From positions 1 to 21,134 of IMG/VR virus record IMGVR_UViG_3300046517_000316: a stretch of DNA of 21,134 nt. One strand, written 5' to 3'. This DNA is from a virus. Positions 2,432 to 20,604 of this stretch are shown one piece after another; the stretch's first letter is position 1; each line of letters begins with the position of its first letter. The translations under genes and the position numbers were made by a program. Under the pieces are notes generated by a model that did not search any database, was not told the origin of the DNA, and saw nothing but the letters and a program-made list of their open reading frames with translations.

Positions 2432-3148
2432 CTAGATCTGCCACCTCTGGTTCGGATCGGACGACGTAACGTATGGCCGGTTATCGACCGGGTTGATAAC
2501 GGTCGAGTCCGTCGCGGGTTGACCACCGCCGCCGCCGCCCGCGAGCGCGTTCTGATACCCCATATTGCCGAGGTAGCTGGTGGCCGCGTTGCCGACGCCC
2601 TTGGCGGTGTTGCCGTAGATCGAGGACAGCGCGCTGCCGAGGCTCAGATCGGTCTGCGCGATCCCCTCTCCGGTTTTCAGGCTCGCCGTCCCTTGCCCGG
2701 CGGCGGCGTTCTCACCGAGTTTCGATATATCGAAAAGACGATTGTAGTAGTTCGTGAACTCCTGATCCGCGAGCCCGGTGCCAAACGTCTGCTCCGCCTT
2801 CAATACGGCTCCCGAGCGCCCGAAGCCCTGTGCCGCCGCGCCCGCGTCAACGGCGCGCAGACCCTGGTCGAGCGACCACTGGTAACCTGGGGACGCCTGG
2901 AAGTTGGCCCGCGCGGCGTTGGCGGCATCCGGCCCGTTCAACCCGAGCAGGTCTCCGGTCGCCGTGTTCGCCTGCCCGCCGCTCGCGGCCCACGGCATCA
3001 GATCCTTGCGCGCCCGTTCCTCGGCGGCCTGTTGCGCGGCGTTGGCCTTGCTGGCCGCGTCCCTGGCGGCGTTGGATTGCAAAACCCCTCCAACGACGCT
3101 GGCGGTGGCTCCTACTCCGGCGGCGACGGCGGCGGCGGCAAAGGGCAC
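2432..3148 (-). CDS. DNA transfer protein p32-like internal virion protein
   Basis: This 238-residue protein starts at GTG 3148, preceded by a good SD (GGAGG, about 9 nt upstream). The N-terminus is Ala/Gly-rich and hydrophobic (residues 1-25), followed by an Ala-rich helix. The central block resembles the family commonly annotated as phage DNA transfer protein p32: SPGYQWSLDQGLRA at about 86-99, then GRSGAVLKAEQTFGTGLA and QEFTNYYNRL. The C-terminus has a Gly-rich run before the last 30 residues. Such proteins lie beside the ejection proteins of P22-like phages and are thought to leave the virion with the DNA. Its location, directly before the transglycosylase ejection gene, fits that role. 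The family resemblance is strong; the function is inferred. Confidence 0.8.
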   Translation of the reverse strand: MPFAAAAVAAGVGATASVVGGVLQSNAARDAASKANAAQQAAEERARKDLMPWAASGGQANTATGDLLGLNGPDAANAARANFQASPGYQWSLDQGLRAVDAGAAAQGFGRSGAVLKAEQTFGTGLADQEFTNYYNRLFDISKLGENAAAGQGTASLKTGEGIAQTDLSLGSALSSIYGNTAKGVGNAATSYLGNMGYQNALAGGGGGGQPATDSTVINPVDNRPYVTSSDPNQRWQI

Positions 3149-3151
3149 GGC

Positions 3152-3499
3152 TCAATCCTCCAGAACGAGGTTGTGGTGTTCGGCGATCGGCGGTTCGCCA
3201 TCCGCTTCGGCATGGTCGGCGTTGTGGATGCACAATAACCCCGTGGCCGGGGTGAGCGTCAAAAACGCGTGCATCATATGCGCGGGGATCGAAATGAGCG
3301 ACGGCGCGTGGAAGTCGCCGAGTTGAACTCCATCCCGCCACACTCTGACCGCTCCGGACGTTACCGCCGTGACATGACCCCATCGGTGGCTGTGTTGGGG
3401 TAGCAACGTCTCCGCGTCGGGCACGGTGTAGGCCTTCACGTAGATGCCCTCGAAGATGGTGAGCGCCTCGGTGATCGGTTGGTTGGGCGCGCGTTTCAT
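3152..3499 (-). CDS. Small cupin-fold protein
   Basis: This 115-residue protein starts at ATG 3499, which overlaps the preceding hydroxylase stop (ATGA), so the two are probably translationally coupled. The frame stays open upstream, but the extension is Arg-rich and antisense-like to the neighbour, so I chose the overlap start. The cupin pattern is visible: HSH at 36-38 with H42 where motif 1 normally has Glu, Gly49, and a second motif with PAHMMH at 72-77 giving H74/H77. These histidines could bind a metal. The length fits a single-domain cupin. Substrate is unknown. Cupins coupled to a 2OG oxygenase suggest a shared pathway or partner, but this is inference. An SD is not obvious. Confidence 0.7.
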   Translation of the reverse strand: MKRAPNQPITEALTIFEGIYVKAYTVPDAETLLPQHSHRWGHVTAVTSGAVRVWRDGVQLGDFHAPSLISIPAHMMHAFLTLTPATGLLCIHNADHAEADGEPPIAEHHNLVLED

Positions 3500-4053
3500 T
3501 CTTCGACCCTCAGACAAATTATCAGAGTCGTTCGCATGTCGTTTCCATCGTTCGAAATTGAATGCGGGCGGGTATTGTCGAACTCGAATATCTCGCCATC
3601 TCGGAACACCTGCTCGTCGCCATCGCACTCCACGATGCACCGCGCGTTAGCTTGCAATACCACATAGCATTTGCGGTTGTAGCGTTGGGCGTGCCATGCG
3701 TCAGCGTCACTGTGACGCTTGATGCGACCGCCCGGTGGCAGTCGTGTGCAAAGGATGCCGCCGATCTCCACCGCCCTCTGTGACGTCATCAGGCCCCATG
3801 TAAGCCGGTGAATCGACGGCAGTTTGTCCCACACCGGATAGAATACGCATTGCCCTGGCCAGTTGTAGTCCTCCGGCTCCCGCAGCGTTTCACGCGGGAA
3901 ATATCTGATCCACAGGTCGGAGGTCAGATCGCCATGCGCGGTGTCCTCGCGCTCCTTACGTTCGGCGTATTGACCCCATTCCGGCACAGCGTCGAGTTCC
4001 GCCAGTATCGGCGCCACGTCCAGGCCCGTGTGCAGAAGTCTGAAATTTCGCAT
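3496..4053 (-). CDS. Aspartyl/asparaginyl beta-hydroxylase-like 2OG-Fe(II) oxygenase
   Basis: This 185-residue protein starts at ATG 4053, directly after the stop of the previous gene (TAG-ATG with no gap). The C-terminal half carries the double-stranded beta-helix signature of the Asp_Arg_Hydrox family: HSD with H114/D116 as Fe ligands, then GEIFEFDNTRPHS with the distal ligand H164, and R174 as a candidate 2-oxoglutarate-binding residue. The N-terminal half has many aromatic residues (W26, W48, Y51, Y63, W65). Family members hydroxylate Asp, Asn or Pro side chains, or related small molecules; here the target is unknown. It lies inside the tail/ejection module and is coupled to a cupin gene. 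A virion protein or a host factor are both possible targets. Confidence 0.82.
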   Translation of the reverse strand: MRNFRLLHTGLDVAPILAELDAVPEWGQYAERKEREDTAHGDLTSDLWIRYFPRETLREPEDYNWPGQCVFYPVWDKLPSIHRLTWGLMTSQRAVEIGGILCTRLPPGGRIKRHSDADAWHAQRYNRKCYVVLQANARCIVECDGDEQVFRDGEIFEFDNTRPHSISNDGNDMRTTLIICLRVEE

Positions 4054-12809: not shown

Positions 12810-13637
12810 TTAGAGGAGACGGCCCAGGCGTTGGGCGTAGACGATGGGGTCGGTCGAGTTCTTCTTCACGTTGCAACTCGCGCAACAGAGTTGGAGGTTA
12901 GAGATCCAGTTTGAGCCGCCTTTGGAGAGCGGAACGATATGGTCCGCGTGGTGGCCTTTCTTCAGGGGTTCGCGGCAATAGGCGCATTTGCCCTTTTGGG
13001 CCTTGAATAGTGCCTTAAGTTCCGCAGCTGTGTGATTGCCTTCGGCGCTCGCCAACGATGCCCGATAACGCAATTTGATGGCCCGCAAGACTTCTGGATT
13101 ATCCTTACGATATTGCAGCACCCTCTCCGGAAATCGTTCGCGGTATGCTTGTGTGTAGCCTCGCTTTTTATCCGGGTTTGCTTTTTCCCATATGTCGTTG
13201 ACGGCTTTACGCTGCTCCTTGGTCGCCTCGCGGTATGCTCTGTAATATTCCGCGTTGGCGGCCTGCCAGCGTCGAGTATATTCAACGCCGCGCGCCGGAT
13301 CGAGGTGATACAAGCGCCGCCATTCGGCCCGTAACGTCTCCGGGTCCGTCGTTGCTTTTTTGTGCAGATATCGTTCGTGGCTGACGGCGTTTTTCTGCTC
13401 GCGATGCGCGTCGTCCCATTCTTTGGTCCTGCTCCGCTTCGCCGCAGCTTGTTCGTCCGTCATCGCTTCCACCCTGGTGCAAGCAATGCAGCCGCCGTCA
13501 ACCGTCTTTCGTTCACTGATGTGGCCGTGTTTCCGGCACGGCCTGTCCGGACCCATGAAGTAGCGCTTCAACCCCAGAGCCTTCGCCTGGACGCGCGTGA
13601 TTATCTCACCGCTATACGGTATGTAGGAAACAGCCAT
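12810..13637 (-). CDS. HNH homing-type endonuclease (freestanding)
   Basis: The likely start is ATG 13637 (275 residues) with AAGGTGAG about 10 nt upstream; the in-frame extension to 13733 has no support. The N-terminus has a zinc-knuckle-like unit (C34, H37, C50, C53, in PCRKHGH and GGCIAC), as in many phage HNH proteins. A long basic helical region (60-200) follows with many Arg/Lys/Tyr. The C-terminal HNH nuclease has C218/C221, DH at 232-233, NLQ near 247 and C-x2-C at 252-255 followed by N256. It lies downstream of the coat gene, a frequent insertion site for freestanding homing endonucleases. It probably cuts a related phage's late region. Confidence 0.88.
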   Translation of the reverse strand: MAVSYIPYSGEIITRVQAKALGLKRYFMGPDRPCRKHGHISERKTVDGGCIACTRVEAMTDEQAAAKRSRTKEWDDAHREQKNAVSHERYLHKKATTDPETLRAEWRRLYHLDPARGVEYTRRWQAANAEYYRAYREATKEQRKAVNDIWEKANPDKKRGYTQAYRERFPERVLQYRKDNPEVLRAIKLRYRASLASAEGNHTAAELKALFKAQKGKCAYCREPLKKGHHADHIVPLSKGGSNWISNLQLCCASCNVKKNSTDPIVYAQRLGRLL

Positions 13638-13674
13638 ATTCGGGCACTCACCTTGCTCGTTGTGGTTAGATGCT

Positions 13675-13722
13675 CGTGGAGTGCTGATAACACTCCACGG
13701 CATCGCCTCAGTGTAGCACTGA
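13675..13722. repeat. Two adjacent hairpins after the coat gene
   Basis: Between the coat stop (13762) and the HNH start (13637) lies a perfect 9-bp inverted repeat (CGTGGAGTG at 13675-13683, 7-nt loop, CACTCCACG at 13691-13699), with a second 6-bp stem TCAGTG/CACTGA (13708-13713 and 13717-13722, loop TAG). No T-run follows on the minus strand, so a simple Rho-independent terminator is not supported. It could reduce read-through from the coat gene, protect mRNA ends, or mark the endonuclease insertion boundary. Confidence 0.45.
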
Positions 13723-13761
13723 AGGGCGAACATCTGCTACTGCTTTACCGTTGCGATATCA

Positions 13762-14871
13762 TTACGCATCGGCGACCGCAGACGAGAAGATCGAGACAAT
13801 TCCCGCATCGACCGGCTTCGTCGTATCGACTGTCGGATCAGTGCCAAAACGTAACTTGCCGATGCCACGCATCTCCTGGATGCCGACCCCGTGCATATAT
13901 CCATAGTCGCGCGTGTTCGTCGTGCTCTTCATCCGTTGCGCCCACGCAACACCCAACGCCTGCGCGCCGCACAACGCCGACATGGCCACATCGATGCCGC
14001 CGCCGCCCGCTCCGGTGATGACCGGCATCTCTGGCACTTCGCGGATTATTACGCCATTGTACATAATGTCGCCGGCCGTGAAGAGCGGATTGTCGCGGCC
14101 ACGATCCCACGCATATTGCATCGCGTTGATGATGACGGGGTCCGTCATCAGGTCACGGAATGGCAATGAAGGCACGAACATCACGAACCATTCCTCGTCG
14201 TCATTGACGGAGACGGGGCGGATGCGCGGCGAGGCGGTGCGGGCTATGCGCTTGGCCAACGTGATCGTGGCGGCGGTCAGTTTGCCGGTCGCGGCCACGA
14301 TGGTGGCCAGGGCGGTCGCCATGACACCAGAGACGGCGTTCGCCTTGGAGTTGCCGAACAGCACCCGGTCGGCGTTGTTGACCATCCAGGTGTTGCGCTG
14401 GCCGGCGGTGGCCGCCGCATAGGATACCTGCACGTTGCCATCGGCGGTGATCGCCTCCAGCGACGTGATGATGTCGTTCCGCATCTTCTCCAGTTCCCAG
14501 ACCATCAGGGCTTCCCTGGCGGCCTCCCGGAGGTCGATGACGCTCTTCTGCTCGTCCCAATCCGACACCGCGACCGCGTGGCGGAACGCCGAGACGACGA
14601 GGTTCAGGCTGCGGGCGTTGAGTATTTCCTCATTGCCCTCCAATACGGTGTTTCCGGTTACGCCGGCTCCGACCAGTCGCCTGACGGTCGGGAAAACGAC
14701 GGTATCCCCGGCTTTTCTGGTGAGGTCTTCCCTCACCTGGATCATGGAACCCATCTGGGTGCCCATGTATCTGGCGAACTGATTCTTCCTGACGTACTCA
14801 GTAAAAAAGTCAGAGTCCCAGATAAGCGGGGTCAGACCCGGTCTCGCCGGGGTCACATTCATATCAGCCAA
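13762..14871 (-). CDS. Major capsid protein, N4-gp56/DUF4043 family
   Basis: This is a 369-residue protein. The N-terminal block WDSDFFTEYVRKNQFARYMG, the AGDTVVFPTVRRLVGAGVTGNTVLEGNEE segment (about 54-83), and FRHAVAVSDW... with DLREAAREAL match the N4-gp56-type major capsid family. The middle and C-terminal regions (ADRVLFGNSKANA, DEEWFVMFVPS, ALGVAWAQRMKSTTNTRDYG, GVGIQEMRGIGKLRFG) also fit phage coat proteins. The start is TTG at 14871: AGGAG lies 9 nt upstream, whereas the first internal ATG (14862) would be 18 nt away. The gene is flanked by HNH endonuclease genes, the upstream one divergent. The family match is firm; fold details are inferred. Confidence 0.88.
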   Translation of the reverse strand: MADMNVTPARPGLTPLIWDSDFFTEYVRKNQFARYMGTQMGSMIQVREDLTRKAGDTVVFPTVRRLVGAGVTGNTVLEGNEEILNARSLNLVVSAFRHAVAVSDWDEQKSVIDLREAAREALMVWELEKMRNDIITSLEAITADGNVQVSYAAATAGQRNTWMVNNADRVLFGNSKANAVSGVMATALATIVAATGKLTAATITLAKRIARTASPRIRPVSVNDDEEWFVMFVPSLPFRDLMTDPVIINAMQYAWDRGRDNPLFTAGDIMYNGVIIREVPEMPVITGAGGGGIDVAMSALCGAQALGVAWAQRMKSTTNTRDYGYMHGVGIQEMRGIGKLRFGTDPTVDTTKPVDAGIVSIFSSAVADA

Positions 14872-14885
14872 CCGACTATACTCCT
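14869..14885 (-). promoter_or_regulatory. SD and unusual TTG start of the coat gene
   Basis: On the minus strand AGGAG (14885-14881) lies 9 nt before TTG (14871-14869). The next in-frame ATG (14862) would need an 18-nt spacer, so the SD position selects TTG. For a coat gene, which needs high expression, a TTG start is odd. A 6-bp hairpin (CGAGTT/AACTCG, 14892-14897 and 14904-14909) lies just upstream of the SD. Confidence 0.55.
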
Positions 14886-14946
14886 AGAACACGAGTTGTT
14901 GGAAACTCGCTTTCTCTCGGATGAGCGTTGTGCTATTCATGTGGCC

Positions 14947-15477
14947 ATGCCAACAAAAGTCATCCCTTCCACCGAACTCACCGCCGCCATGGTTCGGCGT
15001 GCTCTGGACTACGATCCGGCGACCGGACTGTTGTTCTGGCGACACCGTGACGACGTCTTGCCTCGGGTGAATAAACGCCTCGCCGGCAAGCCAGCGGGGT
15101 GCAGGGATGGTCAGTATGGCTACCTCTCGGTGAGGCTTCATGATCGGCTGTATCAGGCTCATCGCCTGATCTGGCTGCACATCACGGGAGAATGGCCCAC
15201 CGGAGTCCTCGACCATGTCGACGGGAACCCGTCGAACAATGTCTGGAGCAATCTGCGGCCGGCCACGCGAGCGGAGAACAACCGAAACCAACGCAACCGC
15301 CGGGATGGCTTTCTGAAAGGCGCGGTTCGAGAACCCAAGACAGGGCGATGGACAGCCATGATCACGCTGGGCCGCAAGAACCATTACCTCGGCACCTTCA
15401 GCACCCAGGAAGAGGCACATGCCGCCTACACGGCAGCGGCCAAGCGTCTCCACGGGGAGTTTGCACGGTTCGATTGA
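14947..15477 (+). CDS. HNH endonuclease with AP2 DNA-binding domain, opposite strand
   Basis: This 176-residue protein starts at ATG 14947 on the plus strand, against the rest of the cluster; the in-frame extension further upstream is antisense to the coat gene and was rejected. Residues 55-112 are an HNH_3-type nuclease (YLSVRLH, AHR with H72, LDHVDGNPSNN with D89/H90, NLRPAT). Residues 122-176 are an AP2 DNA-binding domain (GRWTAMI, YLGTFSTQEEAHAAY, LHGEFA). This pair is the classical phage homing endonuclease architecture. No good SD precedes the start, so expression may be low. Its orientation shows an independent insertion between the scaffold block and the coat gene. Confidence 0.92.
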   Translation: MPTKVIPSTELTAAMVRRALDYDPATGLLFWRHRDDVLPRVNKRLAGKPAGCRDGQYGYLSVRLHDRLYQAHRLIWLHITGEWPTGVLDHVDGNPSNNVWSNLRPATRAENNRNQRNRRDGFLKGAVREPKTGRWTAMITLGRKNHYLGTFSTQEEAHAAYTAAAKRLHGEFARFD

Positions 15478-15831: not shown

Positions 15832-16019
15832 CTGATCGACACGGGCCGCAGTGGGATCTCACCCAGCAGCATCGACACCAGGACCAGGATGAAGATGAGT
15901 GCCACGATGGCGATCGCGATCGTACCGAACGGGGCGGGCAACGGAAGCAACTGGATGACCCAGACGATCACGCCCAGGATGAGGCAAAGCACGAGCAGCC
16001 ATATCAGCAGCGTAATCAT
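15828..16019 (-). CDS. Holin-like small membrane protein, two helices
   Basis: The ATG at 16019 is preceded by a strong SD (AAGGAGGG, about 9 nt upstream). The 63-residue product has two hydrophobic segments, about 3-24 and 31-53, separated by a short turn with prolines (LPLPAPFG), and a short basic C-terminus (RPVSIR). This is typical of small phage membrane proteins annotated as class II holin-like, but there is no endolysin gene next to it in the window, so the lysis role is not confirmed. The larger in-frame ORF upstream is Arg-rich and not supported. Confidence 0.72.
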   Translation of the reverse strand: MITLLIWLLVLCLILGVIVWVIQLLPLPAPFGTIAIAIVALIFILVLVSMLLGEIPLRPVSIR

Positions 16020-16108
16020 TACTCCGTCCCTCCTTGCGTTCCGCCGAGCGCCGCCGCTGATCCGCCCGCCATCAGGCCGGCGAGCCCGTAGCGGCGGATT
16101 AACAACAA
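16019..16108 (-). CDS. Possible microgene before the holin-like gene, 29 aa
   Basis: From a TTG at 16108 (or 16105) the frame gives a 29-residue peptide with a small hydrophobic stretch (RRYGLAGLMAGGSAAALGG) and a TAA that overlaps the holin-like ATG (TAATG). The SD of the holin-like gene lies inside it. No SD or ATG supports its own start apart from the internal ATG in the GLM segment. It fills part of the otherwise gene-free stretch 16020-16190. Low confidence. Confidence 0.22.
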   Translation of the reverse strand: MLLIRRYGLAGLMAGGSAAALGGTQGGTE

Positions 16109-16190
16109 ACAGCTTGACCCGCGCAGACCCGTTAACGTAGAGGATCGCCGCGCCCGCGCCTCGGGGCTTCTCAGGGGTAGGTATTGACGC

Positions 16191-16430
16191 ATGACACATG
16201 CAAATCGCGGCCGGATTACCGCAGCCGCCCGTTCCTTCGCTGACTCCCGTGAGACAAGCGATGAAGTCGCGCAGGCGATCTTCAATCGCACGTCCGATGA
16301 TGCCGAGGTGCAGCGCATCTGGGTAGAACCCACGCCATCGGAAGAAAAGGCGATCCTGGCCGAAGCATGGCGCCTGGCTGACCCTGACGAGGAAATGCTG
16401 TTCTGGGGTGGACGACACAGGCGGCCCTGA
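16191..16430 (+). CDS. Plus-strand hypothetical protein, 79 aa
   Basis: The ATG at 16191 follows a weak SD (TAGGT, about 9 nt upstream). The product is a balanced, acidic helical protein with clear protein-like sequence (DEVAQAIFNR, PTPSEEKAILAEAWRLADPDEE) ending in LFWGGRHRRP, unlike the Arg/Ser-rich opposite-strand reading. It is convergent with the ART-like gene (20 nt apart) and divergent from the holin-like gene. Together with the HNH/AP2 gene it is the only plus-strand gene I accept. No known family is recognised. It may be a small accessory protein with its own promoter. Confidence 0.55.
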   Translation: MTHANRGRITAAARSFADSRETSDEVAQAIFNRTSDDAEVQRIWVEPTPSEEKAILAEAWRLADPDEEMLFWGGRHRRP

Positions 16431-16449
16431 ACGGTCTGATCGGCGCCCG

Positions 16450-17217
16450 TCATGGCGGCACCTTCACCGCCACTGATGGGTCATGCAGTACGATCACATC
16501 ACCGATCGGCACCTTGGAACGGCCCTCTCTGGAGAAGAGATCCCCAAACGATATCCGCGCGCCAGGAAGCCCAGCCTCCTTCGCCTCTCGTAATGCGTCC
16601 TTGAAATAGTTATCCGCGTCCAACGCATGGTATGCACTGCCGTCATAATAATCGTTGATGTGTTGCTGGGCACTCGGATAGCCCTCATCTTTGGCCCACT
16701 TTTCCAGATCCGCCTTGGCGTCTTTTTCCAGTAATGGGTGGTTTATCTCAAATTCGTGGACAATATCCCCGTAATCCTTCGCGTGAGCCTTGCTCGTGGT
16801 CAAATAATACTCGTCTGAGTGTTTGACGCCCTGCGCCCACCTGTCCGCCATGGCCCCGGTTCCAACGCGCGTCGGATCAAGCGCAGTCATCTCATTCGGT
16901 GAACCATGGAATGCCCTGACCATGCCCAACAGATTCCCACTTACAACGCCGCCCGTGTCGAGGCCAAGCGCCGGGTTGTCCATGCGCGCCGCGCCCTGTG
17001 CCGTCATCTGCCCGGTAGCCGGGTCGATGAACTGCCCGACCGGCCCGGCGTAGGTCGTCGGTCGTGGCATACCCGCGCTTTGCAACGTCTCGGTGCCCAC
17101 GGGGTTGTCGGAACGCCAGATCCGGGCGGGATCGTCGGGCGGAAAGAGGTCGTTGCGCGCCGTGTCCAGGTTCTGATTCTGGAACCCCGCCAGCAGCCGA
17201 TTGAACCAACCGGACAT
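16450..17217 (-). CDS. Putative ADP-ribosyltransferase-like (polyvalent ART type) phage protein
   Basis: This 255-residue protein starts at ATG 17217, 2 nt after the scaffold stop. The N-terminal 100 residues are polar and look like a phage structural segment (IDPATGQMTAQGAARMDNPA). From about 101 there is an ART-like domain: RAFHGSPNEMTALDPTRVGTGAMADRWAQG, where H104 in the FHGS motif would be the NAD-binding His, then YYLTTSKAHAKDYG (Y137/Y138, A145, Y149), and a C-terminal GDVIVLHDPSVAVKV resembling the '..VVFDP..IK' end of polyvalent-protein ARTs. The third catalytic residue (Glu/Gln) is not evident; D240 is a candidate. A long insert (about 160-225) is unusual. Its site between scaffold and coat suggests it may be packaged and injected, as T4 Alt is. 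Confidence 0.62.
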   Translation of the reverse strand: MSGWFNRLLAGFQNQNLDTARNDLFPPDDPARIWRSDNPVGTETLQSAGMPRPTTYAGPVGQFIDPATGQMTAQGAARMDNPALGLDTGGVVSGNLLGMVRAFHGSPNEMTALDPTRVGTGAMADRWAQGVKHSDEYYLTTSKAHAKDYGDIVHEFEINHPLLEKDAKADLEKWAKDEGYPSAQQHINDYYDGSAYHALDADNYFKDALREAKEAGLPGARISFGDLFSREGRSKVPIGDVIVLHDPSVAVKVPP

Positions 17218-17219
17218 CG

Positions 17220-18083
17220 CTACCGCCGCCGCTCCGGTCGTTTCAGTATGTCATCGATACTCATTGGCCCAGCGTAACCATTGGTGCCACGTGGAGCGGC
17301 GCTGCGTGCATTGGCTAAAGAAGGTGGAAGACCAGCCGCCGGTGAAATAACCGGAGACCTGGATAATTCTGATTCCATTTTTGCCCGTTCTTCAGCGGCT
17401 ATCCTGGCCCGGTACGCTGCCGGGTCGGTGCCGATTTCCTCGTGCAGCCGCGCCGTCGCGTTGTCGTCGATCATCCACTGATACGGGTGCGGTTTGCTGT
17501 AGAGCTCGTTCCACAGTCTCGGATCGGCCTCCGTCCGTTTCTTGAAATACTCCGTCTCGCGATCGATGACCTCCTTACCGTGCTTGTCGAGCGCCATCAT
17601 CTCGGACGTGTTCAGCCGCTCGTTCAGGACGACGCCGCGCACCCGCCTGGTATATCCCTCGGGATCGCGCGCCGGGTCGATCGGCTCGGCGAACGGCGGG
17701 GGCGTGGACTGTGGTGGCGGCTTCTTCGCCTCCTCCAGCTGCCGAGCCAGCATGTCGCGCTCGGCCTCGGCCTTGCTCGCCCGCTCCACCCAGTTCTGCC
17801 GCCGCTGCCGTTCCTTCTCGTAGGCCGTGCGCGGGACGTTCGGCTGGCCGGGTTCGACCTCACCCGGCTCGGCGTCGTCGTCCGGGTCCGGTGTAACCGG
17901 TTCATTTTGGCTGATTTTTTTGGCTGAATTTGGCTGAGATTTGGCTAAATCTGGCTGAGATTTAGCTGGCACGGCCTCCGGCGCCCGCTCCGGCGCCTTC
18001 TCAGCGGGCGGCGCGGATGATGCCTCGCCCTCCGGGTTGCCGCTTTTCAGGAAGGCATCAAGCTGGGTTGTCGTGTCAGACAT
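17220..18083 (-). CDS. Scaffold-like head assembly protein
   Basis: This 287-residue protein starts at ATG 18083 with a 1-nt overlap with the portal stop (TGATG). It is highly charged and rich in Pro, Glu, Lys and Gln. An N-terminal region with short repeats (about 40-62) precedes an acidic patch (68-78), then a coiled-coil-like stretch (about 85-120, EKERQRRQNWVERASKAEAERDMLARQLEEAKK). The C-terminus is helical with a basic end. This composition and the position right after the portal match P22 gp8-type scaffolds (303 aa), although no direct sequence match can be stated. The internal AT-rich repeat is reported separately. Confidence 0.7.
   Translation of the reverse strand: MSDTTTQLDAFLKSGNPEGEASSAPPAEKAPERAPEAVPAKSQPDLAKSQPNSAKKISQNEPVTPDPDDDAEPGEVEPGQPNVPRTAYEKERQRRQNWVERASKAEAERDMLARQLEEAKKPPPQSTPPPFAEPIDPARDPEGYTRRVRGVVLNERLNTSEMMALDKHGKEVIDRETEYFKKRTEADPRLWNELYSKPHPYQWMIDDNATARLHEEIGTDPAAYRARIAAEERAKMESELSRSPVISPAAGLPPSLANARSAAPRGTNGYAGPMSIDDILKRPERRR
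17907..17972 (-). repeat. AT-rich tandem repeat inside scaffold gene
   Basis: TTGGCTGA or a one-base variant occurs at 17907, 17920, 17930, 17941 and 17951, and a 21-bp period joins 17931-17951 to 17952-17972. It encodes the repeated AKSQP units of the scaffold-like protein at residues 40-62. The base composition is well below that of the surrounding GC-rich DNA. Confidence 0.7.
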
Positions 18084-20206
18084 CAGGCCTCCCCTCCCGG
18101 TTGTTCCGGCGGCGCGAGCGCGTTGTGCCGCGCGATCATCATGTCACCGACACGCTGCACCGCTGACTGCCGCAGATCCCCGGCCCGCGCCTCGTCCACC
18201 GCCGCCTTCGCGTGCATCCCGCGCAGGTTCGCCACATCCATCAGCGCCTGAACCTCGGGCGGCACGACTGTTCCAGGCTCACTCGGCGGATCAGGCGGCG
18301 CGTTCATGTCGGCGAACATGCCATGCACGTCGGCGATGTGATGCACCGTCGCGTGCTGCCGCTCCTTGGCCAAAGCAAAGTCGGCCGCCGCCTTGGCCTG
18401 GGTCGCAGTGGTATCGGCCTGGGCTTTGTCCTGCGCCATCTTCTGCATGGTCTGCTGCTGCTGCGCCTGCGCCTGCTGGTGCTCTTTCAGCATCTCCAAC
18501 AGTTCGTCCTTGTTCCGCAGGTTGCTGGCCGCGATCAGGATCTCCGGCGGGATCAGACCCGGCTGCGTGCCGGCCAACTGAATCAACACCTGGAATTGCT
18601 CGGCCTGGATCGATGGAACGTCAATGCCCTCTTCGATCGTGATATCGATGTCCATGTCCGAGATATCGTTGTCGATCCGTATCACCTGTTCGAGCCGGGG
18701 ATCACCGGGCACGATCTGCATTTGTTGCATCGCCTGAGCGCGCTGCTGCTCGGGCATCGCCGCCAGTTCGTCCATGAGCCGCACCGGCTGATTAATGCCG
18801 ACGTATTTCGTCGAGCCAAGATCGTCCGTCACATGAACAAAACGGCCTGCCGTCCAATACTGACGCGCGGCCATCCAGGAGACCTCGTAGACCGTCCGCG
18901 ACCACATCCGCAGCGTATCGGCGATCGGCTCGTGGGTCGCGGCGCCGCCCGCCTGTTGCGCCAGAATGGCCCGGCCCGACAGTTCGCGTGGATCGGTGCC
19001 GCTCATCGCCGCGTTCGGCCCGGACGCCTGCATTTCCGCCGTCGCGTGTTCCAGCAACTTAAACTGGCCCTGGGCGAGTTCCCCGCCTTCCTGTATCTCG
19101 AACTTCATGCCGGGATTGATGGAGATGTACCCGTCCGGCTTCGCCACTTCCCGCCGCGCCTTGTCCTGATCCGCGACCGCCCCATCTTCCGCGATGACCT
19201 GCCTCACGCTCAGAAGGTGCAGCGCTTTGCTGCGTCGTTTATTGATTTCGTCTTGCACGGAAATGAGATTGCGGACCATACCGTAACGATTGTTTTCCCG
19301 ATCGACGTGCGCGGACGCCATGATGAGGCCGGACGTTGATTTGCCCTTGTTGCCCCGGAATGGCGACTTCATCGGTTCGGCCAGGAAACCAACTCGGGTC
19401 AAGGTCGAGACCCACCATTCATTCTTCTCCTGCCAGTGCATCTGCACGATGCGGACGCGCTCGCGCCTACTGTCGCACCAGACGATATCGTGCGGCCGGT
19501 CGGTGTAGCTGCCGGTCTGCGTCGCGAACGTATCGGATATCAGGTCTTCCGCGTCGGGCCACATCTCGTATGCCTGATCGCGATCCAGCCAGATGACAAT
19601 GCCTTTGTAGCGCGCATCACTGAAATCCAGGCGGCGGCTGTGCGGGTCCCAGAACAGGCGATCGAACGGGACCTGAGTTATGGTGATGTTCGCACCACCC
19701 TGCCCGTCGTCCTCCAACGCCAGATCGGCGCCGCCGGCGCCCTCGACCATCAGGCTTTCATAAACGTCCGAGCGGATCAGGGGGAAATTGTTGTCGTCGG
19801 AAATGTATCGAAGCCCTTGTGTCGCGGCGTCGGCCTTGTCCTCGTCGATTGGGTTGCGGGCGAACGCCTTCGGATCGGTGCGCGACTTGCGCTCGAGGCC
19901 ACACATCAGCTCGACTTTATCGGCGATCTTATTGATCGTGATCTCAGGCTGACCGCGCGCCTTCAGCGCCTCCTTTTCCGCTGAGGACCACTGGTATCCG
20001 TCCTTATAGTCACGGTCGCGTTGCGACATGCGCCGACCATCGGCGGTCGCGGTCTCGCAGTCCTCGAACCATTTGACCTGCTTCGCGTGGAGATCGTCGA
20101 GATCGCGCGGGTAGCGGTCGGACGCGATGCCGGGACCGCCCTTCGGCCGGGACGCCTCGGCGGCCTCCGGGTCTGTCGGCGGGTCGGGGTAGAGGGCCTG
20201 GCTCAT
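18083..20206 (-). CDS. Portal protein, P22 type
   Basis: This 707-residue protein starts at ATG 20206, overlapping the previous stop (ATGA). The family features are clear: an N-terminal helical segment with DGYQWSSAEKEALKARGQPEITINKI (about 66-91), VPFDRLFWDPHSRRLDFSDARY, GNKGKSTSGLI and VRNLISVQDEINKRRSKALHLLSVRQ, then SGPNAAMSGTDPRELSGRAILAQQAGG. A Gln/Ala-rich helical region (about 570-625, HQQAQAQQQQ) precedes the C-terminus, similar to the barrel helix of long P22-type portals (725 aa). It forms the dodecameric DNA channel that binds terminase. Length and order agree. Confidence 0.9.
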   Translation of the reverse strand: MSQALYPDPPTDPEAAEASRPKGGPGIASDRYPRDLDDLHAKQVKWFEDCETATADGRRMSQRDRDYKDGYQWSSAEKEALKARGQPEITINKIADKVELMCGLERKSRTDPKAFARNPIDEDKADAATQGLRYISDDNNFPLIRSDVYESLMVEGAGGADLALEDDGQGGANITITQVPFDRLFWDPHSRRLDFSDARYKGIVIWLDRDQAYEMWPDAEDLISDTFATQTGSYTDRPHDIVWCDSRRERVRIVQMHWQEKNEWWVSTLTRVGFLAEPMKSPFRGNKGKSTSGLIMASAHVDRENNRYGMVRNLISVQDEINKRRSKALHLLSVRQVIAEDGAVADQDKARREVAKPDGYISINPGMKFEIQEGGELAQGQFKLLEHATAEMQASGPNAAMSGTDPRELSGRAILAQQAGGAATHEPIADTLRMWSRTVYEVSWMAARQYWTAGRFVHVTDDLGSTKYVGINQPVRLMDELAAMPEQQRAQAMQQMQIVPGDPRLEQVIRIDNDISDMDIDITIEEGIDVPSIQAEQFQVLIQLAGTQPGLIPPEILIAASNLRNKDELLEMLKEHQQAQAQQQQTMQKMAQDKAQADTTATQAKAAADFALAKERQHATVHHIADVHGMFADMNAPPDPPSEPGTVVPPEVQALMDVANLRGMHAKAAVDEARAGDLRQSAVQRVGDMMIARHNALAPPEQPGGEA

Positions 20207-20604
20207 ACGGTCGCGATCGCTATCCAGGTGCCGCCTCCCTGGCTCACGTAGAGCCGCGCGCCAGCCGCCCCGTCGGTACGCACCCAAATGCTACCGGATG
20301 GCTGCGTACCGGCGGCGACCCCCGTACCGGCCGCGATCGTCGGCGAACCGCTGGCCCCAAGCACGATCGAGCCGATGTTCGCGGTCGCCGCCGGGTTTAC
20401 GTCGATGTCCACGGCGGGGCCGCCAGTGCTGGTCGTGCCGTCCGATCGGTTACCGTCCGATTGCAGGCCCGCCAGCACATCAGCGGCGACCTTGGCCGCG
20501 TTGGCCTCGTACGTGGCGGCATATGCGCCTCGGATTGCCTTCGCGGTATTGCTCAACGGATCGATCACGACCTGAGCGCCCCGTCCCGTCGCTGTCGCCG
20601 GCAT
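20203..20604 (-). CDS. Small phage structural-type protein, 133 aa
   Basis: The ATG at 20604 has a strong SD (GGGAGG, about 8 nt upstream), which selects it over the longer frame up to 20754. The first 50 residues are helical and Ala-rich (DPLSNTAKAIRGAYAATYEANAAKVAADVLAGL). The rest is beta-rich and Gly/Ala/Ser-rich, ending GSIWVRTDGAAGARLYVSQ...WIAIATV, a motif shared by many phage head- or fibre-associated proteins. It lies just before the portal. No specific function is recognised. Confidence 0.65.
   Translation of the reverse strand: MPATATGRGAQVVIDPLSNTAKAIRGAYAATYEANAAKVAADVLAGLQSDGNRSDGTTSTGGPAVDIDVNPAATANIGSIVLGASGSPTIAAGTGVAAGTQPSGSIWVRTDGAAGARLYVSQGGGTWIAIATV

What the first reader, a model, noticed from the sequence alone, without database searches (positions are those of the whole stretch)
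16450..17217. ART-like (ADP-ribosyltransferase) protein encoded between scaffold and capsid genes
The FHGS...VGTG motif, the YY...A..YG block and the VIVLHDPS end follow polyvalent-protein ART families. Its place within the head module suggests a head-packaged effector injected with DNA, as in T4 Alt. The third catalytic residue is not clear and there is a long insert, so it might be a divergent or inactive member.
Basis: partly seen in the sequence, partly recalled or inferred. Interest (0 to 1): 0.72.

Follow-up and report, generated by a model that had tools for sequence, protein, structure and literature searches.

The report
Swappable ADP-ribosyltransferase in phage-head operon
The gene is a divergent member of a known family of phage enzymes predicted to tag host proteins with ADP-ribose; related phages carry different effector domains behind the same first ~90 amino acids, as in a delivery protein with exchangeable warheads, though packaging, injection and activity are unproven.

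Summary
The ORF is real but lies on the MINUS strand (16450-17217, 255 aa), in a P22-like podovirus head operon: portal, putative scaffold, this gene, capsid. It has two modules. Residues 1-91 are a leader. The rest is a short ART-like domain, a divergent relative of ART-PolyVal. Direct Pfam support is weak (E=0.049), but its 68%-identical relative scores 1.9e-4 and a profile of canonical phage ARTs recovers it (5e-5). H104, Y138 and D226 align with the family's H-Y-D triad and are invariant in the wide alignments. D226, not the 'VIVLHDPS' end, is the likely third residue.

The main new observation is domain exchange. Three leader families each occur with this rare ART type and with the canonical ART. 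The first also carries DUF7178 and an unknown domain. Leaders are 78-92% identical within closest pairs; the rare ARTs are 62-68% identical across families. DNA breakpoints fall at the leader/effector boundary, a scar of the canonical gene remains downstream, and the portal tree requires three separate changes. This resembles MuF polymorphic toxins with a different leader. Best reading: a head-packaged, ejected ART effector. Packaging and catalysis are inferred; AlphaFold failed (pLDDT 43), so the fold is untested. New variant of a known kind.

The parts
16450..17217 (-). 255-aa ORF: leader + divergent ART-PolyVal-like domain
   Evidence: relatives L002 and L016
16945..17217 (-). N-terminal leader module (residues 1-91), shared at 70-92% identity by phages with other C-terminal domains; possible head-targeting module (inferred)
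16453..16941 (-). Divergent ('class B') ART domain, residues 93-255
   Evidence: class-A HMM E=5.3e-5, reciprocal search; alignments A7 and A10
16906..16908 (-). Codon of H104 (HGS), predicted catalytic/NAD-binding histidine, strand 1
   Evidence: invariant in 50 ARTs
16804..16806 (-). Codon of Y138 (EYYLTT), predicted NAD-stacking tyrosine, strand 2
   Evidence: invariant in 50 ARTs
16540..16542 (-). Codon of D226 (SFGDL), best candidate for the third (D) residue of the H-Y-D triad
   Evidence: aligned with invariant YLD aspartate in A7 and A10; not so aligned in small subsets
16102..16943 (.). Segment with no detectable DNA similarity to the homologous locus L007, i.e. the exchanged cassette
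   Evidence: blastn breakpoints; alignment A2
16034..16101 (-). Scar: 68 bp, 88% identical to the 3' end of the canonical ART gene of L007 (IIRRYGLAGLMAGG tail), left beyond the new stop codon
16191..16430 (+). Convergent 79-aa YccJ-like ORF inside the exchanged segment; role unknown
   Evidence: PF13993 E=1.2e-5, NF007554 3.8e-6; not found at any other fetched locus
17220..18083 (-). Putative scaffold gene immediately upstream (2-nt gap); position-based assignment
18083..20287 (-). P22-like portal
   Evidence: PF16510 3.3e-116
13762..14871 (-). Major capsid protein
   Evidence: PF13252 2.9e-48, phrog_334 9e-72

Best explanation
The protein is a late-expressed minor head protein with two modules. 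The N-terminal leader, translated straight after the scaffold, carries the protein into the prohead and lets it leave with the DNA. The C-terminal domain is a divergent H-Y-D ADP-ribosyltransferase of the ART-PolyVal kind. Once ejected into the new host it uses NAD+ to ADP-ribosylate a host target early in infection, to take over the cell or blunt a defence. The effector domain is exchangeable: recombination at the leader/effector boundary has exchanged the canonical ART and this rare type in at least three lineages, and in the same leader family has brought in DUF7178 and another large domain. Shown here: homology to ART-PolyVal, conserved H/Y/D candidates, head-operon linkage on one strand, modular exchange with DNA breakpoints and a scar. 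Inferred: packaging, ejection, catalysis, target, and the leader's role.
For: ART homology: PF18760 E=0.049 for this protein, 1.9e-4 for L002, 4.8e-3 for L016. An HMM of 31 canonical phage ARTs, run against 7002 ORFs, ranks this type straight after the canonical ones (L002 3.9e-6, window 5.3e-5, L016 0.017), and the reverse search returns the canonical ARTs; hhalign 88%. H104, Y138 and D226 are invariant in 50-row and 28-row alignments; PMC5512222 gives the family's active site as H (strand 1), Y (strand 2), D (strand 5). Modularity: the leader is 92% identical to L007 (canonical ART) and 79% to L011 (DUF7178, PF23802 8e-27), while the C-domains are 23-27% alike; L002/L035 leaders 78%, L016/L063 83%; yet the three rare ARTs are 62-68% identical to each other with leaders of 34-39%. 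DNA identity stops at 16944 against both L007 and L011; in L016/L063 it resumes 3 nt after the ART stop codon. Portal tree: three changes forced, bootstrap 3-3. Linkage: 39 of 66 canonical loci show a portal, terminase, scaffold or capsid homologue, always on the ART's strand (portal 34/34); phiGT1 has one between portal and scaffold. Prior knowledge: about 44% of phage ARTs lie in head-packaging contexts (PMC9503650).
Against: The Pfam score is below the gathering cut-off for every member tested of both types at this locus. The HMM match covers mainly the first ~90 residues of the domain. The D226 assignment depends on the alignment: small subsets place it differently, and A10 rows were chosen to keep three other motifs in register. 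Two AlphaFold runs failed (pLDDT 37 and 43) and Foldseek found nothing at E<=0.001. No virion proteomics was available. The leader has no recognised packaging domain.
Confidence: 0.6

Rival explanations
1. ART-like effector that is NOT packaged: made late in infection and acting inside the same cell, its gene merely riding in the head operon.
For: No direct evidence of packaging; the leader has no known virion domain; the head operon tolerates other insertions such as two HNH genes.
Against: The leader is conserved separately from the effector and stays in the head operon while effectors change. The gene lies at three alternative places within the head module, always on its strand. Class-A domains match phrog_873, a 1277-residue 'head and packaging' family.
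Confidence: 0.2
2. Degenerate, catalytically dead ART used as a structural or binding module.
For: Strong divergence, a different central region, uncertain third residue; rare (three distinct sequences in the viral collection).
Against: H, Y and a D are invariant in all three members; codon-position differences show constraint; spread to three lineages by separate exchanges suggests a useful function.
Confidence: 0.12
3. Toxin with immunity, MuF-like, used against competitors or to set the lysis/lysogeny choice, with the convergent YccJ-like ORF (16191-16430) as immunity or antitoxin.
For: Same plan as MuF toxins (constant head-linked N-terminus, variable C-terminus; PMC5576092). The small ORF lies inside the exchanged segment.
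Against: The YccJ-like ORF occurs at none of the other fetched loci with the same ART type. MuF immunity candidates follow the toxin gene, this one is antisense. Whether the phage is temperate is unknown.
Confidence: 0.08

Closest known systems
ART-PolyVal (PF18760), Tox-ART-HYD2 clade of phage polyvalent proteins (Iyer et al. 2017, PMC5512222)
   Same: HGS...GTG motif, Y motif followed by A..Y, GxPG, candidate H-Y-D triad, phage head-gene context
   Different: Short single-domain effector rather than a large multidomain polyvalent protein; extra segment before Y138; different central region; below the Pfam cut-off
Canonical ART genes of the same P22-like head operons (e.g. L007, L013, L063 here; phiGT1_5, QLB38217.1)
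   Same: Same leader families (L007, L013, L063), same operon, alternative allele at the same locus
   Different: Canonical ART is 27-32% identical to this type, longer, and ends in a tail (YGLAGLMAGG in L007) that remains here only as a scar
MuF polymorphic toxins (Jamet et al. 2017, PMC5576092)
   Same: Constant N-terminus linked to head/packaging genes plus variable C-terminal effector, ART among them
   Different: No MuF domain found; leader is ~90 aa and unrelated; phage is P22-like; no conserved immunity ORF seen
T4 Alt
   Same: Phage ART proposed to be delivered from the head
   Different: Alt/VIP2 clade with R-S-E active site; delivery and host targets are experimentally established for Alt, not here

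Membership tests
ART-PolyVal (PF18760) | Profile score above Pfam's gathering cut-off (31.2 bits) | tested here: not met
   14.8 bits; L002 22.7, L016 18.1; canonical members at this locus also fail it, e.g. L007 28.2
ART-PolyVal (PF18760) | Detectable profile homology to canonical phage ARTs | tested here: met
   E=5.3e-5 in 7002 ORFs, reciprocal
ART-PolyVal (PF18760) | H in strand 1 and Y in strand 2 | tested here: met
   H104 and Y138 invariant in 50 aligned ARTs; strand positions not verified structurally
ART-PolyVal (PF18760) | D in strand 5 | tested here: inconclusive
   D226 aligns with invariant YLD in A7 and A10 but not in small subsets; no reliable model
ART-PolyVal (PF18760) | ART fold | tested here: inconclusive
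   AlphaFold pLDDT 43, pTM 0.32; no Foldseek match at E<=0.001
ART-PolyVal (PF18760) | NAD+-dependent ADP-ribosyl transfer | not testable with these tools
   needs biochemistry
MuF polymorphic toxins | MuF domain (PF04233/PF06152) at the N-terminus | tested here: not met
   Pfam scan shows no MuF match in any leader-bearing protein tested
MuF polymorphic toxins | Constant N-terminus with variable C-terminal effectors | tested here: met
MuF polymorphic toxins | Small immunity ORF next to the toxin | tested here: inconclusive
   a YccJ-like ORF is present but antisense and unique to the window
T4 Alt-like head-packaged ART | R-S-E active site | tested here: not met
   H and Y motifs instead; clade definition from PMC5512222
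T4 Alt-like head-packaged ART | Protein present in the virion and ejected | not testable with these tools
   no proteomics of this phage

The most novel reading that the evidence does not exclude
P22-like podoviruses carry a polymorphic head-ejected effector system distinct from MuF: short leaders in the head operon act as packaging/ejection signals, and interchangeable C-terminal effector cassettes (two ART types, DUF7178, at least one unknown domain) are swapped by recombination at the leader boundary, presumably under an arms race with hosts.
Probability: 0.5. Interest if true: 0.72.

Novelty: new variant of a known kind. Interest (0 to 1): 0.52.

Why it matters
ARTs near phage head genes are known, and delivery is usually argued from position alone. 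Here the leader and the effector evolve apart, which gives a defined ~90-residue candidate for a head-targeting and ejection module in P22-like phages, and a way to find further effectors: read whatever is fused to the leader. DUF7178 and the C-terminal region of L105 become candidate injected effectors by this logic. If the leader works as a signal it could be tested directly by fusing it to a reporter.

Tried and rejected
Single-sequence AlphaFold (pLDDT 37) and a 28-row alignment (pLDDT 43): no usable model; Foldseek hits all E>=2.7 and ignored. PDB sequence searches gave only chance hits; one ADP-ribosylating toxin at E=0.68 is not significant. Cutting canonical ARTs into fragments to improve the alignment misaligned them and was dropped. 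Genome-contig scans with the ART type and with the leader found no relative, so no host is assigned; phage and plasmid collections had no true relative. A pattern for the GDxIxLHDP end found no further member. A PHROG hit of L007 to a 'virion structural protein' over leader residues (E=0.027) did not recur with leaders alone and is not used. The 144-aa minus-strand ORF 16019-16453 was rejected as a gene: it is antisense to the YccJ-like ORF and ends in the scar.

Full report
OBSERVATION. The window is a 21,134-base virus record. The ORF is at the stated coordinates but on the minus strand: 16450-17217, 255 aa. Upstream in the operon are a P22-like portal (18083-20287) and a 287-aa ORF in the scaffold position (17220-18083); downstream is the capsid (13762-14871). 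The scaffold assignment rests on position only.

WHAT THE DOMAIN IS. PF18760 (ART-PolyVal) is the only Pfam hit, E=0.049, below the curated cut-off. Relatives improve this: L002 (68% identical in the domain) gives 1.9e-4 and L016 4.8e-3. Only three distinct sequences of this type ('class B') were found in the viral collection: window, L002/L003, L016/L017. The canonical type ('class A') is common: 384 matching stretches, best 80 kept. A class-A profile searched against 7002 ORFs from all loci ranks class B immediately after class A (L002 3.9e-6, window 5.3e-5, L016 0.017); the class-B profile returns class A in reverse. The aligned part is mostly the first 90 residues.

ACTIVE SITE. The published configuration of these ARTs is H in strand 1, Y in strand 2, D in strand 5 (PMC5512222). 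In a 50-row alignment of both classes, H104, Y138 and D226 are invariant, and again in a 28-row alignment. Rows of the latter were chosen to keep Y, the putative strand 3 and GxPG in register, not D. D226 lies in SFGDL and aligns with the invariant YLD of class A; the D of class A 'VVFD' varies (VVFS, VVFN), so the 'VIVLHDPS' end is unlikely to be the catalytic residue. In small subset alignments D226 is not placed opposite YLD, so this is a best estimate. Two structure predictions failed, so the fold is not confirmed.

MODULAR EXCHANGE. The first 91 residues recur in other phages, after the scaffold-position gene where the locus shows it, fused to other domains: canonical ART (L007 92%, L013 70% leader identity), DUF7178 (L011/L012, PF23802 8e-27; leader 79%) and an unrecognised large region (L105). 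Two further leader families show the same A/B alternation: L002 (B) with L035 and L068 (A), and L016 (B) with L063, L042 and L094 (A). Leader identity within the closest pairs is 78-92% while class A versus B domains are 27-32%; the three class-B domains are 62-68% alike while their leaders are 34-39%. DNA similarity between window and L007 is 86% through putative scaffold and leader, stops at 16944, and resumes at 16101-16034 with the 3' end of the canonical gene, now beyond the new stop codon: a scar of replacement. Against L011 it stops at the same base. In L016/L063 it stops near the end of the leader and resumes 3 nt after the ART stop codon. In a portal tree, class B needs three changes, forced by well-supported branches, each member having class-A relatives; window's closest is L007 (91% identity). 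Direction of replacement is read from the window's scar and from rarity; it is not proven for the other two.

HEAD LINKAGE. Of 66 class-A loci (some redundant, many truncated), 39 contain a detectable portal, terminase, scaffold or capsid homologue and every one is on the ART strand (portal 34/34, terminase 22/22). The gene occurs between terminase and portal, portal and scaffold, or scaffold and capsid. The cultured phage phiGT1 has a class-A gene between portal and scaffold and a published virion proteome (PMC10386132), whose table could not be opened. A survey found about 44% of phage ARTs in contexts suggestive of head packaging (PMC9503650).

INTERPRETATION. The best reading is a head-carried, ejected ART effector with an exchangeable C-terminal domain, working like MuF polymorphic toxins (PMC5576092) but with a different leader and no MuF domain. 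Packaging, ejection, catalysis and target are inferred. Rivals are a non-packaged ART, a dead ART, and a toxin with an immunity protein. The YccJ-like ORF (16191-16430, plus strand) inside the exchanged segment could be an immunity candidate, but it is absent at the other loci.

NOVELTY. The enzyme family and the idea of head-packaged ARTs are known. New are this short divergent ART type and the repeated exchange of effector domains behind head-operon leaders in P22-like phages; no paper found in the library describes it, which is not proof of novelty.

Noticed in passing
window 16191-16430 (+): 79-aa YccJ-like ORF (PF13993 1.2e-5), antisense in an otherwise minus-strand head operon, inside the exchanged segment; unique among fetched loci.
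   Followed up: partly
window 14740-15477 (+): HNH_3 + AP2 homing-type endonuclease (PF13392 3e-15) on the plus strand next to the capsid gene; a similar gene lies at the same place in L007 (7604-8221, -).
   Followed up: partly
window 12810-13733 (-): Second HNH endonuclease (PF01844 3.8e-12) downstream of the capsid gene.
   Followed up: no
window 3496-4053 (-): Aspartyl/asparaginyl beta-hydroxylase-like protein (PF05118 9.5e-11) next to a cupin-like ORF (3152-3640), close to an ejection-protein homologue (2432-3148, phrog_598 5e-23).
   Followed up: no
L011:1391-2956 and L012:1677-3242: Same leader fused to DUF7178 (PF23802 8e-27), a family of unknown function; by position a candidate injected effector.
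   Followed up: partly
L105:5836-8118: Same leader type fused to a ~660-residue C-terminal region without significant Pfam, PHROG or NCBIfam match.
   Followed up: partly
L007:6001-7023 and relatives: Canonical ARTs of this locus end in a conserved glycine-rich tail (RRYGLAGLMAGGGAAA) after the ART domain, possibly membrane-active; missing from the divergent type.
   Followed up: no
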